This document shows positions 1-13,866 of a DNA stretch of 24,055 nt, piece by piece. Each line of letters opens with the position of its first letter. Position 1 is the first letter of the stretch. The DNA lies in IMG/VR virus record IMGVR_UViG_3300025131_003988, positions 1 to 24,055 of that record; one strand, written 5' to 3'. Under the pieces are notes generated by a model. It was not told the origin of the DNA and did not search any database. It was given only the letters and a program-made list of their open reading frames with translations. The stretch is from a virus. A program made the translations under genes and the position numbers.

Positions 1-1014
1 TTAGATGAGGGTTCACTTGTAAATTTAAAGGGGTCCTCATTTACAGCACAAGAATGTAAAGTACGTTCACCAATTTATATGTATCAAAAAATACCCATCG
101 GTTATCGTGAACCAGGTGATATCAAAATAGATAAATTTGCTTTCACAGACTTTTCACTTCAAAGTCAACAAGAGTTTTATGATCACATTATAAGAAATTT
201 TAATACAGATGTGTGGATATGTTCTTGGGCCGAAGATACTGCAACAAATGATATCTTTGATACGCAATTAGGTTTGCAAAAAGTCGGTACAAAGGTTACT
301 ACATTTGGTGAATTGATTGTGTATTGGTTTTTACCATACTCAAAAGATATGTTTGGTGAAAGCAGAAAACATCCAAAAGTCCCTGACACAGAATACCATA
401 ATCTTGTAAAATTAAAATTGCCTACTGATATCTCACATCTTATATCTGCAATACAAGAGAAAATTTCTAAACTTCCTGTATTTACTAACCATTATTCAAA
501 CTATAATAAACGCAAATCTTGGTCAGCAGTATCTTTAAGAGGGTACAGTGCAGAACCAGAGTTTATTACAGACCCAGCAGAAATGAATAAGAAATGGAAA
601 GAGGAAAATAAAGATGTGTTATTTGAAATGCAAGATACATATCTATATGATGACTTTCCTGAAGTGAGAGAATTGGTGAAGATGCTCAAAGCAGAAGAGA
701 TACATCGTGTGCGATTTATGAAATTAAATGCTGGAGATGGTGAATTAGACCGACATACTGATTTGGTTGATCCGAAAGGAGGATTGGCAGATGGTAAGTT
801 AATGCGAATACATTTTCCTATTATCACTAATGACAAAGTTCTGTTTGAGTCCTGGGACTTGACAGGGCATAAGCAATGTGCTAATATGAAGGTTAATGAA
901 GCATGGATGTTGGATACTAGAAAACCTCATCGTGCAGTAAATGAAGGAACAGAAGATAGAGTGCATTTAGTGATTGACATTGTTTCAAATGAACGATCTA
1001 GAACATTATTATGA
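1..1014 (+). CDS. Aspartyl/asparaginyl beta-hydroxylase-like 2OG-Fe(II) oxygenase, 5'-partial
   Basis: The frame is open from base 1, so the gene continues beyond the left edge; the first in-frame ATG is at 79 but has no Shine-Dalgarno and is probably internal. Counting from that Met, the C-terminal third shows a cupin-type metal site: H226-x-D228 (in DRHTD) and a distal H284 (in KPHRAVN), followed by R294, which suits 2-oxoglutarate binding. This order and spacing match the aspartyl/asparaginyl beta-hydroxylase family, which hydroxylates side chains of proteins or free amino acids with Fe(II), O2 and 2OG. The N-terminal part (about 150 residues) is not recognised and may be a second domain. 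The stop overlaps the next start as ATGA (1011-1014), so the two are translationally coupled. The substrate is unknown. The fold call is fairly secure, the exact reaction is not. Confidence 0.7.
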   Translation, partial: LDEGSLVNLKGSSFTAQECKVRSPIYMYQKIPIGYREPGDIKIDKFAFTDFSLQSQQEFYDHIIRNFNTDVWICSWAEDTATNDIFDTQLGLQKVGTKVTTFGELIVYWFLPYSKDMFGESRKHPKVPDTEYHNLVKLKLPTDISHLISAIQEKISKLPVFTNHYSNYNKRKSWSAVSLRGYSAEPEFITDPAEMNKKWKEENKDVLFEMQDTYLYDDFPEVRELVKMLKAEEIHRVRFMKLNAGDGELDRHTDLVDPKGGLADGKLMRIHFPIITNDKVLFESWDLTGHKQCANMKVNEAWMLDTRKPHRAVNEGTEDRVHLVIDIVSNERSRTLL

Positions 1015-1613
1015 ACATATTTTTTCTTGACAAAGATCCTGTACTTGCGGCACGTTATCATTGCGATAAACATGTGCCGAAAATGATCGTTGAATATGCT
1101 CAACTTATGAGTACCGCTCACCGATTAATTGATGGCGAACCATATGAAACAAAAAATAAGCGAGGTCACAAACTGACTAGATGGAGATTATCAGATGACC
1201 GAGAACATAAATTATATTTTGCCTCCCATTTTAAGCATCCTTCTAATATTTGGGTGCGGTCTAGCACTCAACATTATGATTGGTTGTATGAGTTATTTAA
1301 TGCTTTGTGTGCTGAATTCACGTTGCGATATGGAAAGTTTCATAAAACAGACCTTGACTTACGTGAATATATTAAAAGAAAACCTGACAATCTTCAAGAC
1401 AATGGATGGTCAGATCCACCACTTGCAATGCCAGAACAGTACAAATTAAACAAAGCAATTCCTTCTTATCGTAATTTCTATGCTACTGAAAAACGTAGAT
1501 TTGCGACATGGAAAACGGAAAAACCTCACTGGTACGATTGGTGGTGTATGATGAATGACACTTTTAATTCTAAATCTAAATCAATAGAGGAACATGTACA
1601 CTTTAATAGTTGA
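1011..1613 (+). CDS. Conserved phage protein of the MNIFxLDxDP...CDKHVxKM type, unknown function
   Basis: This is a 200-aa soluble protein. Its N-terminal signature, MNIFFLDKDP followed by CDKHVPKMIVEYAQL and STAHR, is a pattern I associate with proteins common in marine T4-like phages and usually left unannotated. Conserved-looking features are the CDKHV motif (about residues 18-22), an ASHFKHPSNIWVR segment in the middle, LAMPEQY near residue 137 and a Trp/Tyr-rich C-terminus (KPHWYDWW). The general layout, with a His-rich helical N-terminus and an aromatic 'PxWYxxW' end, faintly recalls T4 DenV-type pyrimidine-dimer glycosylases, but I cannot align it and do not make that call. It starts at the ATGA overlap with the oxygenase gene, and the downstream 39-aa ORF begins inside its 3' end, so it sits within one coupled operon. 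Confidence 0.7.
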   Translation: MNIFFLDKDPVLAARYHCDKHVPKMIVEYAQLMSTAHRLIDGEPYETKNKRGHKLTRWRLSDDREHKLYFASHFKHPSNIWVRSSTQHYDWLYELFNALCAEFTLRYGKFHKTDLDLREYIKRKPDNLQDNGWSDPPLAMPEQYKLNKAIPSYRNFYATEKRRFATWKTEKPHWYDWWCMMNDTFNSKSKSIEEHVHFNS

Positions 1614-1713: not shown

Positions 1714-2705
1714 GTGAACATTTTGTAATTGTTGCTGGTTTTTTAGACACAAAAGAAAAAGAAAAATATGCCGTTGAGATATTTGATAAGTTATCTGAAA
1801 TTGATAAAATAACAACATGTTATGTTACTCATCATAAAAAGATTCCTGATAAAATTTTAGATGCGGCAAATTATGTGATTTACAATAGTTATAATCCTAT
1901 TATGAATTGGGATATTTATGATGATCACTCAAAAAAATTTCAATCTGTTTTGAGTATTAATAATTTATTAAGTTCATTAGAATTACATTATGCTCAACCT
2001 TATCATGGTTTTGCACAGTTAATTTCAATGTGTGATGGTATTGCATTAGGAATTAATAAAGGTTATCATACATTTTCTTTTATGAATTATGATGTAGTAG
2101 ATTTTTGTTTACAACAATTACCACAACATATAATAGAGATTAAGAAAAATAATACGGATACTATTTTTTATCCTTATTATATAGAGAATATTAAAAAAAT
2201 CGTTGGAAGTACAGAATTTTTTACATTTAATTCAAAATTTGCAAAGGCAATTTATATTTACAGTAAATATTCAGAATTTAAAAAAATAGAAGATCCTGGT
2301 TTAGAAAATTTTGTAAGCATTGTATGTAAATTACATGGTATTAAAACATTATTTGTCGAGAACTCACATTCAAAAAATGGAACGCTCGGCAAAGTAAATT
2401 TTGGTATAGATTATGTAATTCATGATTATTTTTATCCTATTGTAAAAATAAAATATAAAGATAAAATATATGATATGTTAGTCATACCATTCAAACATGA
2501 AGATGGGCATTATATATGTTATCAAAAACTAGAATCTGATGATGGATTTATAGATAATTTGAATTTTTTTGTAAATTCATTAGAAATCGAAGAAAAAACT
2601 GTGGTTAAAATAACAAAACCTTGCGAGATAAAAATATTACATCATAAAAAAGAAGTTTTCAATTTTAAATTGCATGATGATAGACATTTCGGATGGACAA
2701 AATGA
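1710..2705 (+). CDS. Glycosyltransferase-like phage protein (tentative)
   Basis: The product has 331 aa and is markedly AT-rich in codon use (Asn, Lys, Ile, Tyr, Phe) compared with its neighbours. The start is TTG, inside the TTGA stop of the 39-aa ORF, with GAAGG about 9 bases upstream. The N-terminal half has alternating beta strands and helices: FVIVAGFLDTKEKEKY, a VTHHKKIPD strand-turn, then PYHGFAQLISMCDGIALGINKGY and FMNYDVVDF. That last arrangement ('HGFA...GYhxhxFhNYD') resembles the donor-binding half of phage and giant-virus glycosyltransferase-like proteins, with NYD in the place of a metal-binding DxD. The C-terminal half is unrecognised. A sugar-transfer role (to DNA, virion or host surface) is only an inference. 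The composition fits recent acquisition. Confidence 0.4.
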   Translation: MSEHFVIVAGFLDTKEKEKYAVEIFDKLSEIDKITTCYVTHHKKIPDKILDAANYVIYNSYNPIMNWDIYDDHSKKFQSVLSINNLLSSLELHYAQPYHGFAQLISMCDGIALGINKGYHTFSFMNYDVVDFCLQQLPQHIIEIKKNNTDTIFYPYYIENIKKIVGSTEFFTFNSKFAKAIYIYSKYSEFKKIEDPGLENFVSIVCKLHGIKTLFVENSHSKNGTLGKVNFGIDYVIHDYFYPIVKIKYKDKIYDMLVIPFKHEDGHYICYQKLESDDGFIDNLNFFVNSLEIEEKTVVKITKPCEIKILHHKKEVFNFKLHDDRHFGWTK

Positions 2706-3490
2706 GTACATTATGGGATGAGACTGATGAAGATTGCCTTGAACTTGTAAAAGATTGGACAGATCCATATCCCACTCCACAACTTATTGAGTATGATGGT
2801 GTTCTTGTAGTAAGAGATGATTTGCTCAATGCAGGTTCAAAAGTTCGTTTCGTAGATTATCTTATTGGTTCAAATAAAAACATAAATGAATGGGTCTTTG
2901 GTTCATGTCCTGCTACAGGATATGCACAGATAAGTTTACCTATTGCATGTAAACGTCATAACAAAAAAGCAGTTTTGTTCATGGCTAAACGTGATGAGAA
3001 AAATTTTACTGAGTATCAAAAACGTGGCATAGAATTAGGTGTTGATTATCATTGGGTAGAAAATGGTATGTTGACAGTCACACAAAAACGTGCAAAAGAT
3101 TATGCCGCCGAGTCATCTGACAGAATGGTATTGCCATTGGGACTTGAACATCCAACAGTTCTAGGGTCAATAATCAAAATTGCAAGAAGTTTACCAATCA
3201 CACCAAATGAGGTATGGACTGTAGGTTCAAGCGGAACATTAAATAGGGGGTTGCAATTAGCGTGGCCATATGCTACAATACATGTTGTAAGTGTGGGGCA
3301 CATCATGAATGAACGAGAAATAGGTAGAGCAATTTATCATCGTAGTGAATATAGGTTTGACCAACCTGTAAAAGAGTATGAGATGCCACCGTTTCCTTCC
3401 GCTCCTACATATGATGCAAAAGCATGGAAGTTTATTCAAGAACTTTCTGACAAAAAAGGTACAACATTATTTTGGAATGTGGGTGCATGA
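2702..3490 (+). CDS. Fold-type-II PLP-dependent enzyme homologue (ACC deaminase / D-cysteine desulfhydrase-like)
   Basis: I place the start at ATG 2702, which overlaps the upstream stop as ATGA; an in-frame ATG at 2693 is the alternative. The 262-aa product shows the layout of the tryptophan-synthase-beta superfamily: GSKVRFVDYL with K47 where the Schiff-base lysine sits, then GSCPATGYAQISLPIACKRH in the place of the usual GGxxSNHxR motif, a strand AVLFMAKR, and a late glycine loop GSSGT (175-179), the usual phosphate-binding GxGGT position. Family members cleave or deaminate small amino acids. Here the substrate-side SNH residues are replaced, so the reaction may differ or be lost. It is shorter than typical members (about 320-340 aa). 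Its stop overlaps the DNA methyltransferase start (ATGA), suggesting joint expression and possibly joint function. Confidence 0.6.
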   Translation: MSTLWDETDEDCLELVKDWTDPYPTPQLIEYDGVLVVRDDLLNAGSKVRFVDYLIGSNKNINEWVFGSCPATGYAQISLPIACKRHNKKAVLFMAKRDEKNFTEYQKRGIELGVDYHWVENGMLTVTQKRAKDYAAESSDRMVLPLGLEHPTVLGSIIKIARSLPITPNEVWTVGSSGTLNRGLQLAWPYATIHVVSVGHIMNEREIGRAIYHRSEYRFDQPVKEYEMPPFPSAPTYDAKAWKFIQELSDKKGTTLFWNVGA

Positions 3491-5028
3491 AACATTTTTA
3501 TGAACGTAATGACTATGTTCTAGATCATGAAGTCAACAGAACATTTGACGATATTCTTTGGATGTCAGATGATGAATTTCGTCAATGGTTGACTGATATG
3601 AGAAAGACAATTGCATATGCTTGGGATGAACTTGGGTTGCCACCAAGAGTTGGTTGGAATGAAAATGATATTATAGAACAGTTTAACAAGATGTCATCGT
3701 TTCCTGTTCATGAGATGGACAAAGGTGATAACATAGTTCGTAATACATCTGTCATCGGTAATGCTTGTAATCAGTTCTTTCCGACGATGATGAAGACCAG
3801 AATTAATTATTCTAAAAATGATGATGGTCTTTCAATCTACGACCATTTTGTAGATGATAAACTATCTGAAAAAGTTTACAAATATTCACATCGTCATTTC
3901 AAGCGAGACAGTTTTTATGAGTATTCACAAACAGTTCCTGTTCGTGGTAAGATTAAAGACTTTCTAATACCTGCCGAATCTGGTAAGCAATGGGTAGAAA
4001 TATTTGAGAGAGATTTTAGACATAAAGAAACTCATGACTACTGGATTGCACCTCATTCAGAAGATACAGAATATACTGGTCATAATCAAGAACTTGTGAA
4101 TGTGAAATGGTGTACACTTACGAAAGATGAAATCAACGAATTGAATATTCCTGAAAAATGCCTTGTCAATGCAAAACTAGATGAGAATGATTTATTTCGT
4201 ATTCGTTTATTCAAGTTCGGTCAAAGAATATTTCCTGTTGGTTTCAAAGCATTTAGAATTTCATGGTGTCAGTATGCAGTAAACTTTCCACCACTCACCG
4301 CTAAATATTTGTATGAGAGATACACCGAACACATTAAAGAGCAAGATGTTATCAACATTTATGACCCTTCTAGCGGTTGGGGCGGTCGTATTCTTGGGGC
4401 TATGGCTGTCCGTGACGACCGTAATATCCACTATATTGGGACTGACCCGAACACGGATCATACGATTGAAGAATTGGGTATTACAAAGTATGAATACCTT
4501 GCAAACTTTTTTAACGAAAATAAATATGGATCTCTTTTCCCGCACAACAATACCTATGAAATCTATCAACTCGGTTCGGAAGAAATCAGTAATAATAAGC
4601 AGTTTCAAACGTACAGAGGAAAACTTGATATCGTTTTCACAAGTCCTCCATATTTTGCAAAAGAAGCCTATTCAGAAGACGAAGAACAATCTTACAAAAA
4701 ATTCCCAGAATACCAGTCTTGGGTAGATGGGTTTTTACGACCAACTCTTGAAACATGTATTGAGTACCTAAAACCAAACAGATATTTGCTTTGGAACATT
4801 GCCGATGCAAAGTTTGGTCCTGATATGTTACCGCTTGAAGAAGACAGTAACAAGATATTGCGAGAGCATGGTATGGAGTTTGTTGAAGTAGTGAAGATGA
4901 CACTTGCTTGGATGCCAGGTGGTAATCGTATTGGTGAAGATGGTAAGCCTAGTTACAAAAATGCAGTACAAGTAGATGGTAAGTGGTTCAAGTATGAGCC
5001 GATATTTGTTTGGAAGAAACCTGCTTGA
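3487..5028 (+). CDS. DNA methyltransferase, TSPPY type (N4-cytosine or N6-adenine)
   Basis: I chose ATG 3487, which overlaps the upstream TGA as ATGA; an in-frame ATG lies at 3472. The 513-aa protein has a SAM-binding motif I, DPSSGWGG (293-300), followed by an acidic strand end (GTDPN), and a catalytic motif IV, TSPPY (385-389), in the order I then IV. The SPPY form is most common in N4-cytosine methyltransferases. The N-terminal ~280 residues hold no recognised domain and could contribute target recognition. The C-terminus (AWMPGGNRIGED, FVWKKP) is typical of phage and prophage methylases. Its stop codon lies inside the -35 box of the next promoter. A tRNA and a BglII-like nuclease follow directly, so it could be the protective half of a restriction-modification pair, or serve anti-restriction alone. 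Confidence 0.85.
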   Translation: MKHFYERNDYVLDHEVNRTFDDILWMSDDEFRQWLTDMRKTIAYAWDELGLPPRVGWNENDIIEQFNKMSSFPVHEMDKGDNIVRNTSVIGNACNQFFPTMMKTRINYSKNDDGLSIYDHFVDDKLSEKVYKYSHRHFKRDSFYEYSQTVPVRGKIKDFLIPAESGKQWVEIFERDFRHKETHDYWIAPHSEDTEYTGHNQELVNVKWCTLTKDEINELNIPEKCLVNAKLDENDLFRIRLFKFGQRIFPVGFKAFRISWCQYAVNFPPLTAKYLYERYTEHIKEQDVINIYDPSSGWGGRILGAMAVRDDRNIHYIGTDPNTDHTIEELGITKYEYLANFFNENKYGSLFPHNNTYEIYQLGSEEISNNKQFQTYRGKLDIVFTSPPYFAKEAYSEDEEQSYKKFPEYQSWVDGFLRPTLETCIEYLKPNRYLLWNIADAKFGPDMLPLEEDSNKILREHGMEFVEVVKMTLAWMPGGNRIGEDGKPSYKNAVQVDGKWFKYEPIFVWKKPA

Positions 5029-5053
5029 CCTTTCGCATTATTTTTGATACAAT
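5025..5053 (+). promoter_or_regulatory. Sigma70-type promoter with extended -10, before tRNA-Gly
   Basis: TTGACC (5025-5030), a 17-bp spacer and TACAAT (5048-5053), preceded by TG at 5045-5046, give an extended -10. The methyltransferase stop TGA is embedded in the -35 box. Predicted transcription start is near 5060, about 29 bases before the tRNA. Confidence 0.75.
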
Positions 5054-5088
5054 CAATTATAGATGATGCGATATATACATCTCCTAAA

Positions 5089-5164
5089 GCGAGTATAGTT
5101 CAGTCGGTAGAACATCTGCTTGCCAAGCAGAAGGTCACGAGTTCGAATCTCGTTACTCGCTCCA
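5089..5164 (+). tRNA. tRNA-Gly (anticodon GCC), CCA encoded
   Basis: The 76-nt sequence folds into a full cloverleaf. The acceptor GCGAGTA pairs with TACTCGC, the D stem is GTTC/GAAC with GG in the loop, the anticodon stem is TCTGC/GCAGA around TTGCCAA (anticodon GCC), and the T arm is ACGAG-TTCGAAT-CTCGT. The discriminator is T, as usual for bacterial tRNA-Gly, and CCA is encoded (5162-5164). It reads GGC and GGU. It lies between a methyltransferase and a restriction-endonuclease-like gene and shares a promoter with the latter. Confidence 0.96.
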
Positions 5165-5187
5165 TGAAAATTAAAATCAATAAATGA
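5164..5187 (+). other. Seven-codon mini-ORF fused to the tRNA 3' end, overlapping the nuclease start
   Basis: The last A of the encoded CCA begins an ATG that opens a 7-codon ORF (MKIKINK). Its TGA overlaps the ATG of the nuclease gene (ATGA at 5184-5187). The 14 bases from 5164 to 5177 are repeated exactly at 5184-5197, so the mini-ORF looks like a duplicated copy of the nuclease start. There is no Shine-Dalgarno for either start. Whether it is translated is unknown. Confidence 0.4.
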
Positions 5188-5711
5188 AAATTAAAATTGA
5201 AAAATTCAATGGTTCATCCAAATTTTTGGATGATCTAAGTGATGTTGCATTCAAACTTCCATATTTCACTAAACCATCAAAACAAAAAACAAAGATCGGC
5301 AGTTTGGTATTTGATCCTGTTAAAACAAATAACTATTTTAAAGAGACTTTGGTAGAAAGTGGCTGGAAACCAAATGTGAAAATTCCTTCTTCTTTACGTC
5401 ACATGGGTAAAGATGTTGATTTTTTCAAAGATGGTGTCGTAATGGAAGTACAGTTTTCAAATTATCCTTTTCTTTTGAATAATATTATTAGAACAGAGTT
5501 ATTCAAAAAATCTTCATTGAAACTGGATGACTCTTTTGTACATGAATTAATTATTATTACCAAGACAAAAGACATTCCCTCTGCCAACAGTTCACTTTAT
5601 TTTGAACAGGCAAAGAATCAAATTACTTCCATCATTGAATATAATATGATTGACTTGCCAATTACCTTGATAGGTTTGTACGAAAATGAAGTCAGTTCAA
5701 AAAACCCTTGA
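5184..5711 (+). CDS. BglII/BstYI-like type II restriction endonuclease
   Basis: This is a 175-aa PD-(D/E)xK-fold protein. Its core GKDVDFFKDGVVMEVQFSN has D79, E88 and Q90; the D-x8-E-V-Q arrangement is the same as the active site of BglII (Asp84, Glu93, Val94, Gln95), and the following helix (NYPFLLNNIIRTELF) also has the look of that family. BglII cuts A/GATCT and BstYI R/GATCY; the site here is not predictable by eye. It is shorter than BglII (223 aa). No Shine-Dalgarno is visible and translation may depend on the 7-codon mini-ORF upstream. It is transcribed with the tRNA from the promoter at 5025. Roles could be degradation of host or rival phage DNA, with the upstream methyltransferase protecting the phage. 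Confidence 0.72.
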   Translation: MKIKIEKFNGSSKFLDDLSDVAFKLPYFTKPSKQKTKIGSLVFDPVKTNNYFKETLVESGWKPNVKIPSSLRHMGKDVDFFKDGVVMEVQFSNYPFLLNNIIRTELFKKSSLKLDDSFVHELIIITKTKDIPSANSSLYFEQAKNQITSIIEYNMIDLPITLIGLYENEVSSKNP

Positions 5712-5735
5712 CATTCCTACCCAGTTTGCTATTAT
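5708..5735 (+). promoter_or_regulatory. Promoter with consensus -35 and extended -10
   Basis: TTGACA (5708-5713), a 16-bp spacer and TATTAT (5730-5735) with TG at 5727-5728. The stop of the nuclease gene is inside the -35 box. It drives the HExxH/VWA gene. The leader holds a 6-codon ATG-to-TAA frame (5746-5766) and no clear Shine-Dalgarno before the gene at 5772. Confidence 0.75.
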
Positions 5736-5771: not shown

Positions 5772-8159
5772 ATGGATATTAGAGAATCAAAATCGATGTT
5801 AGCCAAATTGTTGGCCACTGAGAACATCAAAGTTGAACACGGCAATTATGAAACTGCCGCCTTTGATCCTAATAAACGTGTGCTTTATCTTCCGATTTTC
5901 AAGTGGATGGACGGTGATGTCTATGACCTTCTTGTTCTTCATGAAGTGAGTCATGCACTTAATACTCCTGCTGATGGTTGGCATTCTTCTGCTAGTTCAA
6001 AAGGCAAAGGTTACAAGTCATTTCTTAATGTCACCGAAGATGCTCGTATTGAGAAGAAAATCAAGCGAAAGTATCCTGGTGCTTCCAAAGCAATGGTACT
6101 TGGGTATCGTGAATTGATGAAAAATGATTTCTTTGGTATCAGTCATGTAAATGTTGACGGACTGCCTCTCATTGACCGTATCAATCTTCATACAAAAGGT
6201 GGTGCTTCAATGGGTATTTCTTTTACCGAAGATGAAATGAAGTGGGTTGATAAATTGATGTCTCTTGAAACTTTTCCTGAGATTGTCGAGTTTACTGACC
6301 GACTTTATGATTATTGTGCAGAAAATGAAAGTATGACCGATGATCATGATTTCGATATGTTTTCAAGTAAAGGTTATGGTGAAGATGATGAAGAAATTAA
6401 TCCTGATATGATGGGTGATTCTCCTTTTGAATGGGATGATACTGAAGAAACTGAAGGTGAAACTGGTATGAAAGGTTCTTCAAGTGAAAGTGAGGATGAA
6501 AGCGAAGGTGAAGATGAAGAATCTTCTAATTCTGATGGTCCTTCTGCCGAGTCTGATGATTCTTCAAATGGTTCAGAAGAAACCAATTCTTCTTCTGGTA
6601 ATTCACCTGCTGATAAATTTAAAGATGAATTTGAGAATGATGAATCTGATGGTCAAGTCAATCCGTCAAACACTGTAGGTGCTGAAGGTGGTGTCAATAC
6701 TAACATTAATCCGAATGCAGTTGCTGGTCCTCGTTCAATTACTGATGAATTCTTTCGCAGAAAAGAAACAGAATTGAATGATAGAATTGATAGTGACAAA
6801 AAATATATCTATGCTAATTTACCAAAGCCAGTTCTTGAAAATATTGTTATAGATTATAAAAAATTGGCTCAGTTACATGATAAGTATTATAATCAAGAAC
6901 AACATTCAGGATATTGGGGCACAATGACACCATCGGAGTCATGGTCAACCGCTCCAAAACGATATAAGGAATTCCGTGAGCAAAATAAATCAATTGTTGA
7001 TTATCTTGCCAAAGAGTTTGAGATGAAGAAACGTGCAGATGAGTACAAACGTACTGCATCGGCAAATACTGGTGTTCTTGAAACTTCAAAACTTTACTCT
7101 TACAAGTATTCTGATAATCTTTTTAAGCGAGTGGCTACGGTTGCTAGTGGTAAAAATCATGGTCTTGTCATGTTTATTGACTGGTCTGGTTCAATGAGTG
7201 CTAATATGGCGGGTACGGTTGAACAAATGATGATACTTGTGATGTTCTGCAAAAAAGTAAACATTCCGTTTGATGTTTATGCTTTTACTGACAGAATATG
7301 GCGTTCTAATGATGAATCAATCATTGATACAGATGATGGTAAACCCAAATGGGATTATCAACCTGGTGATTTTTGTGAGCAAGGTCATTTCAATCTCATG
7401 CAGTTATTTTCGAGTAAAATGTCAAATATCGAATTCAACAAAGCATGTTGGAATGCTATCAACATCCGTGATTATTACAACAGTAAAGTTGATTGGCACT
7501 ATAATGGTGGCAAGAGTCCTTCAATCCCTAGTCAATACTCGTTGGGTGGTACACCGTTGAATGCCGCTATCGTTGCTAGTCATGAACTGGTTCGCAGATT
7601 CAAGCGAGACCACAATGTTCAGATTGTTAATACCGTATTTCTTACTGATGGTGATTCATGTCAAGCAGGTTATTATCTTGATTCAGAAGGTAAAGAACAA
7701 CATATTGGTCGTAATGATCAATTGACGGTACGTGATATACCATCAAAGTCGGAAGTTGTACGTTCCAAAACAATGGGTTGGTTTGCTTCTCACCGAGCAA
7801 CTACTGAATTGTTGTTCAATTCTTTGCGTAAAGCGACTGGTGCAAACATCATTGGTTTCTTTCTTGTCAATCGTCTTGACCGTCATAAAGCGAGTTATTA
7901 TTCAAATGATAATAACGATTTCAATGACATGATGGATTCATGGCGTAAAGAAAAATGCATTGTTGCTGAGATTGACGGTTACGACAACCTCTATATAATT
8001 AAAGATGGTTCAGATTTGCAGATTGATGAAAAGTCAGAACTTGACAAAGTTGATGCTGGCTCTAAAAAATCTGCGATTCGTACCGCTTTCAAAAAAATGA
8101 ATCGTAAGAAATTACGCAACCGTGTAGTCCTTAACAAATTCATTGAACAGGTAGCATAG
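5772..8159 (+). CDS. CobT-like protein: HExxH metallopeptidase-like domain plus acidic linker plus VWA domain
   Basis: The 795-aa protein is built of three parts. An N-terminal domain carries H57-E58-V-S-H61, a gluzincin-type zinc motif, followed by a conserved-looking NVTEDARIEKK segment, so it resembles the VWA-associated metallopeptidase domain. A very acidic, Ser/Glu/Asp-rich linker occupies roughly residues 200-295. A C-terminal von Willebrand A domain starts with the MIDAS motif D470-W-S472-G-S474, with further MIDAS elements in GGTPLNA and LTDGDS. The same organisation occurs in CobT of aerobic cobaltochelatase and in MoxR-partner VWA proteins. Paired with the MoxR/CobS ATPase downstream, it is better read as a metal-dependent remodelling partner than as a cobalamin enzyme, since no chelatase large subunit is present. 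There is no good Shine-Dalgarno at its start. Confidence 0.8.
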   Translation: MDIRESKSMLAKLLATENIKVEHGNYETAAFDPNKRVLYLPIFKWMDGDVYDLLVLHEVSHALNTPADGWHSSASSKGKGYKSFLNVTEDARIEKKIKRKYPGASKAMVLGYRELMKNDFFGISHVNVDGLPLIDRINLHTKGGASMGISFTEDEMKWVDKLMSLETFPEIVEFTDRLYDYCAENESMTDDHDFDMFSSKGYGEDDEEINPDMMGDSPFEWDDTEETEGETGMKGSSSESEDESEGEDEESSNSDGPSAESDDSSNGSEETNSSSGNSPADKFKDEFENDESDGQVNPSNTVGAEGGVNTNINPNAVAGPRSITDEFFRRKETELNDRIDSDKKYIYANLPKPVLENIVIDYKKLAQLHDKYYNQEQHSGYWGTMTPSESWSTAPKRYKEFREQNKSIVDYLAKEFEMKKRADEYKRTASANTGVLETSKLYSYKYSDNLFKRVATVASGKNHGLVMFIDWSGSMSANMAGTVEQMMILVMFCKKVNIPFDVYAFTDRIWRSNDESIIDTDDGKPKWDYQPGDFCEQGHFNLMQLFSSKMSNIEFNKACWNAINIRDYYNSKVDWHYNGGKSPSIPSQYSLGGTPLNAAIVASHELVRRFKRDHNVQIVNTVFLTDGDSCQAGYYLDSEGKEQHIGRNDQLTVRDIPSKSEVVRSKTMGWFASHRATTELLFNSLRKATGANIIGFFLVNRLDRHKASYYSNDNNDFNDMMDSWRKEKCIVAEIDGYDNLYIIKDGSDLQIDEKSELDKVDAGSKKSAIRTAFKKMNRKKLRNRVVLNKFIEQVA

Positions 8160-13122: not shown

Positions 13123-13866
13123 ATGGATGGATATAAAGGTACTTTTATAGACTCTGAAAAAATGTATTATGAGTCGAAAGTTAATTTTCATAGATTTAGA
13201 GAAGCAGAAGAAATTTATGGTTTTTTGTTGACAAATGGTGGTCTTGATTTTAGTGCTTTGAAAAAGGCATATGAATTAGATCCAATTTTGTTTAGTCAAT
13301 ATTTGAGTGTAAAAAAGTCTGATTTAGGATACGGTGAGAAAATAAAATATCAATTAATTGATCAGTGTGATAGTAGACATATTATGATGTCTTCAATAAT
13401 TTTTTCAAAATATAAAGTTTTTGATAATATTTTGGAAATTGGTGGAGGTTATGGGAATTGGTATAGACTTAACAGAAATTTGATATCTTTTAATAAATGG
13501 ATTATGGTAGATTTACCATTTTGTTTGGATTTACAAAAATGGTATTTGAATAAAGAAATTGGAGATACAAATAAACTTGATTTTAGGTCTGCATATAATT
13601 ATACTATAAATGAACCTATAGATTTGGCTATTGCGGCTCATAGTTTGAGTGAATTATCATGGGATGATTTCTTAACATATTTTGCAAAAGTTTTGCTCAA
13701 ATGCAAATATTTATTTTACGCTGGTCATGCTTGGAATTGTGGCTCAGAAATGTTGTCTAACAAATTAAATAAAATATCTGAAAATTTTGACTTGATTGAA
13801 TCATATATGGAAGATAATGATAATGTTTATAATAATTTATATGTGAGAAAAGATGACACCATTTGA
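13123..13866 (+). CDS. SAM-dependent methyltransferase, sugar O-methyltransferase-like
   Basis: The product is 247 aa and clearly AT-rich. It contains a class-I SAM motif, NILEIGGGYGNWYRL, followed by a strand WIMVDLPFCLDLQKWYL and a later LAIAAHSLSELSW. The EIGGGYG...VDLP...Q.YL pattern is what I recognise from 'putative sugar O-methyltransferases'. The target might be a glycan or a small metabolite. The first ATG (13123) lies directly against a candidate -10 element and lacks a Shine-Dalgarno; M14 (ATG 13162) is an alternative start. Its 3' end overlaps gp62 by 14 bases, so ribosomes finishing here could start gp62. Composition and position suggest insertion into the clamp loader operon. 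Confidence 0.62.
   Translation: MDGYKGTFIDSEKMYYESKVNFHRFREAEEIYGFLLTNGGLDFSALKKAYELDPILFSQYLSVKKSDLGYGEKIKYQLIDQCDSRHIMMSSIIFSKYKVFDNILEIGGGYGNWYRLNRNLISFNKWIMVDLPFCLDLQKWYLNKEIGDTNKLDFRSAYNYTINEPIDLAIAAHSLSELSWDDFLTYFAKVLLKCKYLFYAGHAWNCGSEMLSNKLNKISENFDLIESYMEDNDNVYNNLYVRKDDTI

What the first reader, a model, noticed from the sequence alone, without database searches (positions are those of the whole stretch)
3487..5711. Methyltransferase - tRNA - BglII-like nuclease unit: a possible phage-borne restriction-modification pair
Seen: a TSPPY methyltransferase, then a promoter, tRNA-Gly, and a nuclease with the D-x8-E-V-Q active-site pattern of BglII. Known: BglII/BstYI cut GATC-centred sites, and SPPY is typical of N4-cytosine methylases, the class used by M.BglII. 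Inference: the phage modifies its own DNA and then makes the nuclease, which would destroy host or rival DNA. A complete pair within a T4-like genome split by a tRNA is unusual.
Basis: partly seen in the sequence, partly recalled or inferred. Interest (0 to 1): 0.7.

Follow-up and report, generated by a model that had tools for sequence, protein, structure and literature searches.

The report
Lone BglII-type cutter in T4-like phage
A T4-like phage carries a restriction enzyme of the BglII family without its protective methylase and seems to survive it because its own sequenced DNA has no copy of the enzyme's cutting site, so the enzyme looks like a stand-alone weapon or mobile nuclease rather than half of a restriction-modification pair.

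Summary
The parts are real: methyltransferase 3487-5028, promoter-like site 5025-5053, tRNA-Gly 5089-5164, BglII-family nuclease 5184-5711. The nuclease is a true BglII relative (phmmer E 5e-48; model TM 0.93, rmsd 1.4 A to 1d2i) with catalytic and core DNA-contact residues kept, but it lacks the C-terminal arm of about 50 residues. The pairing is not supported. The methyltransferase is an old gene found at this place in about 80 related phage contigs without the nuclease, and it is not M.BglII-like. All ten BglII relatives found in bacterial, archaeal and other viral contigs sit beside a convergent M.BglII-like methylase; window and L002, both T4-like, do not. The nuclease is a clean 534-bp insertion between the tRNA's CCA end and the next gene's promoter, in a slot where relatives carry HNH, GIY-YIG or XhoI-like nucleases. 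The window has no AGATCT (7.5 expected by codon shuffling, P<0.001); nuclease-free relatives have expected numbers, and AGATCT ranks 1st of 1945 hexamer classes for window-specific depletion against two relatives. Best reading: a solitary AGATCT-specific endonuclease, tolerated by site loss, acting on rival or host DNA like a free-standing homing endonuclease. Activity, and the effect of the truncation, are untested.

The parts
5184..5711 (+). Solitary BglII-family endonuclease (175 aa), C-terminal arm missing; N64, D79, E88, Q90 (catalytic in BglII) and S92, N93, R103, N135, S136 (core DNA contacts in BglII) kept
5165..5698 (+). Inserted segment: lies between the CCA end of tRNA-Gly and the backbone in front of gene 5772; relatives G003-G008/L003-L008 have the two flanks adjoining; G+C 29% against 37% in neighbours
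5089..5164 (+). tRNA-Gly (GCC), backbone gene, 76 nt ending in an encoded CCA, also in relatives without the nuclease
5025..5053 (+). promoter-like site upstream of tRNA-Gly and nuclease (TTGACC-17-TACAAT)
   Evidence: consensus match only; count in region not above shuffles
5708..5735 (+). promoter-like site (TTGACA-16-TATTAT) of the downstream conserved gene; the nuclease's stop codon TGA 5709-5711 lies inside its -35 hexamer, so the ORF ends in backbone sequence
3487..5028 (+). conserved class-I methyltransferase with TSPPY, not the cognate partner; old backbone gene of this phage clade
2693..3490 (+). conserved neighbour of the methyltransferase (phrog_7093, annotated threonine dehydratase)
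5772..8159 (+). conserved T4-like gene (phrog_459, peptidase) that bounds the cargo slot on the right

Best explanation
The nuclease is a solitary type II restriction endonuclease of the BglII family that was inserted as cargo beside tRNA-Gly in a T4-like phage, in a slot where related phages carry homing-type nucleases. Shown: homology and fold, kept active site, absence of an M.BglII-like methylase in the window, clean insertion, absence of AGATCT in 24 kb. Inferred: it cuts AGATCT; the phage tolerates it because its genome has lost those sites, as reported for PacI in its bacterial host; during infection it cuts DNA that still has the sites, that is co-infecting related phages and/or the host chromosome. 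Breaks in co-infecting relatives, which have AGATCT about 1.1 kb on either side of the insertion point, would be repaired from the nuclease-bearing genome, spreading the gene as a free-standing homing endonuclease does. The neighbouring methyltransferase has a separate job.
For: BglII homology and fold. Active-site and core contact columns invariant. Methyltransferase conserved without nuclease. All ten other BglII relatives with context (bacteria, one archaeal bin, three viral contigs) have a convergent M.BglII-like methylase; window and L002 do not. AGATCT 0 in window against 7.54 expected from codon shuffling (0 of 1000 shuffles), relatives near expectation (6/5.9, 7/9.2, 10/10.4, 8/12.8, 9/12.8). 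AGATCT ranks 1 of 1945 hexamer classes for window-specific depletion against G003+G004, 1-18 against other single relatives of 20 kb or more. Six relative sites fall in aligned window sequence, none kept (other 2-GC palindromes keep 43%). Viral contigs with nuclease plus methylase keep AGATCT (35 in 114 kb, 36.8 expected; 15 in 169 kb). Same slot carries HNH, GIY-YIG, XhoI-like genes in relatives. Precedents: PMC3488263 (PacI), PMC2988022 (free-standing endonucleases in intergenic regions, embedded downstream promoters, segB in tRNA region).
Against: The nuclease lacks the C-terminal arm with the near-invariant RYSR motif (BglII Y190/R192), so it may be inactive or altered; no assay. Only one carrier of this insertion is known and only 24 kb of its genome, so a cognate methylase elsewhere is not excluded. 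Depletion could come from a host AGATCT restriction system rather than from the phage's own nuclease. Site depletion rests on about 7.5 expected sites; against the short relative L003 (1 site) it is not significant (rank 384). Mobility was not seen directly.
Confidence: 0.62

Rival explanations
1. Restriction-modification pair: the TSPPY methyltransferase methylates the BglII site and protects the phage.
For: Adjacent genes; methyltransferase has an SPPY motif.
Against: Methyltransferase conserved without nuclease in about 80 contigs; not of the cognate family (no hit to PADLOC PDLC03230, which the true partner of L001 hits at 8.5e-125); motif order I-IV; site absent from the window, so nothing to protect there; relatives with the methyltransferase but no nuclease have normal AGATCT counts.
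Confidence: 0.05
2. Decaying remnant: a once complete BglII gene, truncated at the insertion junction, no longer active; site loss is a relic of past activity or chance.
For: C-terminal arm lost exactly at the junction with backbone; last codons and stop are backbone; long branch in the tree.
Against: 170 codons open without frameshift; all catalytic and core contact residues kept after divergence to 37-49% identity; BstYI, an active relative, ends at the equivalent point (203 aa, aligned to its residue 201).
Confidence: 0.2
3. Site loss is caused by a host AGATCT restriction system; the phage nuclease was taken from such a host and is only a weapon against other phages.
For: These phages clearly avoid other restriction-type sites (AGCT 0 in window, G003, G004; GATC 0 in G008 and L016).
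Against: AGATCT avoidance is seen only in the nuclease carrier, not in its relatives G003-G007, whereas AGCT avoidance is shared with G003 and G004.
Confidence: 0.12
4. A cognate M.BglII-like methylase lies elsewhere in the unsequenced part of the phage genome (separated R-M system).
For: Window is only 24 kb of what must be a larger genome (relatives reach 117 kb).
Against: With a methylase the sites need not vanish; contigs with the pair keep them; G006, 117 kb of a close relative, has no such methylase.
Confidence: 0.06

Closest known systems
BglII restriction endonuclease (PDB 1d2i, 1dfm, 1es8)
   Same: 46-47% identity, same fold (TMq 0.93), same catalytic and core DNA-contact residues
   Different: no C-terminal arm (BglII ~174-223, with Y190/R192), no cognate methylase beside it, phage-borne
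BstYI (PDB 1sdo, 1vrr, 2p0j)
   Same: same superfamily; also ends at the point where the window protein ends
   Different: recognises RGATCY; only 23% identity; RGATCY is not avoided in the window (16 sites)
PacI, solitary endonuclease tolerated because its host genome lacks the sites (discussed in PMC3488263)
   Same: solitary enzyme plus site-free genome
   Different: bacterial host; unrelated nuclease family and 8-bp site (from my knowledge)
Free-standing homing endonucleases of T4-like phages (SegB, MobE and others; PMC2988022)
   Same: intergenic position between conserved genes, next to a tRNA gene, overlapping the downstream gene's promoter
   Different: GIY-YIG or HNH enzymes with long sites, not a palindromic 6-bp type II enzyme
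Bacterial homing endonuclease with a restriction fold (Zhao, Bonocora, Shub, Stoddard; cited in PMC10448857)
   Same: restriction fold used for homing
   Different: intron-encoded in a bacterial tRNA gene (from my knowledge); not a close BglII relative

Membership tests
BglII-family type II endonuclease | sequence and fold of BglII | tested here: met
BglII-family type II endonuclease | catalytic N69/D84/E93/Q95 and core contacts S97/N98/R108/N140/S141 (roles from my knowledge of the BglII structure) | tested here: met
   equivalent N64, D79, E88, Q90, S92, N93, R103, N135, S136
BglII-family type II endonuclease | C-terminal arm with RYSR motif (Y190/R192) | tested here: not met
   absent in window; present in the other 9 aligned members and BglII, in most as RYSR
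BglII-family type II endonuclease | cleavage of A^GATCT | not testable with these tools
   only indirect: AGATCT absent from the window
Type II restriction-modification system (BglII type) | cognate M.BglII-like methylase next to the nuclease | tested here: not met
   present in ten other loci, absent in window and L002
M.BglII-type beta-class methyltransferase (for ORF 3487-5028) | motif IV (SPPY) before motif I; family similarity | tested here: not met
   DPSSGWGG (motif I) at about 293 precedes TSPPY at about 385; weak local similarity only; no PDLC03230 hit
Free-standing homing endonuclease of T4-like phages | insertion between conserved genes, absent from close relatives | tested here: met
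Free-standing homing endonuclease of T4-like phages | cleaves the allele without insertion near the insertion site and is inherited preferentially in mixed infection | not testable with these tools
   relatives have AGATCT at window-equivalent 4089 and 6770, about 1.1 kb on either side; inheritance needs a cross

The most novel reading that the evidence does not exclude
T4-like phages recruit ordinary type II restriction enzymes (BglII-type here and in L002, XhoI-like in L033, L047, L107) without methylases as interchangeable free-standing homing or interference nucleases, and immunise their own genomes by erasing every copy of a 6-bp palindrome.
Probability: 0.4. Interest if true: 0.75.

Novelty: new variant of a known kind. 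Interest (0 to 1): 0.6.

Why it matters
Type II restriction enzymes are thought to need a matching methylase; a phage that keeps only the cutter and removes its sites would link restriction enzymes to homing endonucleases and phage-phage interference. It is easy to test: one small protein, one plasmid with an AGATCT site, and the rest of the phage genome. No BglII relative was found in 50,697 annotated phage records.

Tried and rejected
Looked for a frameshifted C-terminal arm after the stop: none in any frame. Tested RGATCY (BstYI specificity): 16 sites in window, not avoided. A simple Markov estimate of AGATCT alone (2.9 expected) is not significant; the comparison with relatives and codon shuffling is. 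A tree of 12 nucleases has no well supported fork, so it cannot say whether window and L002 share an origin. Tested whether XhoI-like carriers avoid CTCGAG: zero in all relatives, no power. L002 is too short (4.6 kb) for a site test. The MTase model matches only generic class-I methyltransferases among its top 50 hits (TMq below 0.3), so its target stays unknown. Searches of phage records gave no nuclease relative; plasmids gave one remote BglII/BstYI-family hit in Acinetobacter.

Full report
What is there. The window is a complete 24,055-bp virus record of a T4-like phage (clamp loader A subunit; clamp loader, polymerase and UvsX-like proteins are read from the translations).

The nuclease. 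It matches BglII with E 5.2e-48 over residues 16-168, a PADLOC type II REase model of BglII's length with 1.8e-50, and its AlphaFold model (pLDDT 85.8) superposes on 1d2i with TMq 0.93 and rmsd 1.4 A; BstYI, OkrAI and BamHI follow. Columns for N64, D79, E88, Q90, N93, R103, N135 and S136 are invariant in the four-way alignment with BglII. Relative to BglII and nine other aligned relatives it lacks the C-terminal arm with the near-invariant RYSR. BstYI (203 aa) ends at the equivalent point, so the arm is not needed in every family member, but whether this protein cuts is not shown.

The methyltransferase is not its partner. About 80 phage contigs carry the same methyltransferase (47-94% identity), usually behind the same phrog_7093 gene, and none of those loci has the nuclease. 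By contrast, ten BglII relatives found in bacteria, one archaeal bin and three other viral contigs (L001, L095-L103) have a convergent methylase of about 350 aa with SSPPYN(I/L)GKEY or a close variant immediately downstream; those compared are 52-72% identical to each other, and the L001 one hits a 360-aa PADLOC type II methylase model at 8.5e-125. The window methyltransferase has its SAM motif before TSPPY, shares only short weak similarity with them and does not hit that model. No such methylase is encoded in the window, in L002 or in three nuclease-free relatives.

An insertion in a cargo slot. In relatives the tRNA's CCA end runs directly into the promoter of gene 5772. In the window 5165-5698 is inserted between them; the nuclease's last codons and its stop TGA come from the backbone, the stop lying inside the TTGACA of that promoter. 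The truncation is thus tied to the junction. The interval between methyltransferase and gene 5772 is variable: HNH in L003, GIY-YIG in L016 and L078, XhoI-like genes in L033 and L047 (Pfam E 0.004 and 3e-5, just below cut-off; PADLOC 3.6e-6 for L033), a Tet/JBP oxygenase in L055, others unknown. L002, another T4-like contig, has a full-length solitary BglII relative in a different place, between clamp-loader genes. T4's free-standing homing endonucleases sit in such intergenic places, one in the tRNA region, and can overlap the next gene's promoter (PMC2988022).

Self-tolerance. AGATCT is absent from the window. Codon shuffling that keeps proteins and codon use predicts 7.54 sites, and none of 1000 shuffles had zero; five nuclease-free relative contigs have about the expected number. 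In an unguided comparison of all hexamer classes against the two lineages G003 and G004, AGATCT is the most window-depleted of 1945 (p 0.0066 as a single test; ranks 1-18 with other single relatives of 20 kb or more, 384 against the short L003). Six AGATCT sites of relatives lie in sequence aligned to the window and none is kept, against 43% for other palindromes of the same composition, which alone is weak evidence. Viral contigs that have the nuclease with its methylase keep sites: 35 in 114 kb (36.8 expected) and 15 in 169 kb. GATC itself (58) and RGATCY (16) are not avoided. This is the pattern expected from an AGATCT-specific enzyme without methylation. A host AGATCT system would give the same loss, but relatives that share the AGCT avoidance do not show it.

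Mechanism. Shown: family, fold, kept residues, insertion, missing partner, missing sites. Inferred: cleavage of AGATCT, use against rival phage or host DNA, and spread by repair. Relatives have AGATCT at window-equivalent 4089 and 6770, about 1.1 kb on each side of the insertion, so a cut there would favour conversion to the nuclease-bearing type. PacI is the known example of a solitary enzyme in a site-free genome (PMC3488263).

Verdict. Observation confirmed; pairing rejected; the likely truth is more interesting: a solitary type II restriction enzyme in a homing-nuclease niche of a T4-like phage. The family is known, the arrangement is a new variant. Main doubts are the lost arm, one carrier, and only 24 kb of sequence.

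Noticed in passing
window 1-24055; loci L084 (G003), L085/L086 (G004), L093/L094 (G008), L016: Whole tetranucleotides are missing: AGCT 0 in window (73 expected by composition), G003 and G004; GATC 0 of 97 in G008 and 0 of 39 in L016. Different members of one phage clade avoid different 4-bp palindromes, presumably host restriction sites.
   Followed up: partly
window 2693-5028 and about 80 loci (L003-L082): A phrog_7093 protein (annotated threonine dehydratase, PLP-enzyme-like) and the TSPPY methyltransferase form a conserved neighbouring pair across the clade; the methyltransferase has an unassigned N-terminal half of about 250 aa. May be a DNA or nucleotide modification pathway of unknown chemistry.
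   Followed up: partly
L033:7566-8159, L047:8201-8791, L107:569-1135: XhoI-family-like solitary endonuclease genes close behind the conserved methyltransferase in related phages (position checked for L033 and L047).
   Followed up: partly
L055:4854-6218: Tet/JBP-type oxygenase (Pfam 2.5e-27) in the same slot of a related phage.
   Followed up: no
L002:2120-2806: Full-length solitary BglII relative between clamp-loader genes (gp44 and gp62 homologues) of another T4-like contig, start and stop overlapping the neighbours.
   Followed up: partly
window 5164-5203: Imperfect tandem duplication ATGAAAATTAAAATCAATAA/ATGAAAATTAAAATTGAAAA at the nuclease start; the first copy is a mini-ORF MKIKIN-stop.
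   Followed up: no
window 1-1015 against L003:33-1047: 99% identity to L003 that drops to 75-87% beyond it: recent recombination between these phages.
   Followed up: no
window 13123-13866: Unassigned protein with a SAM-methyltransferase-like motif (ILEIGGGYGNWYR) between the clamp-loader genes, the same junction where L002 carries its nuclease.
   Followed up: no
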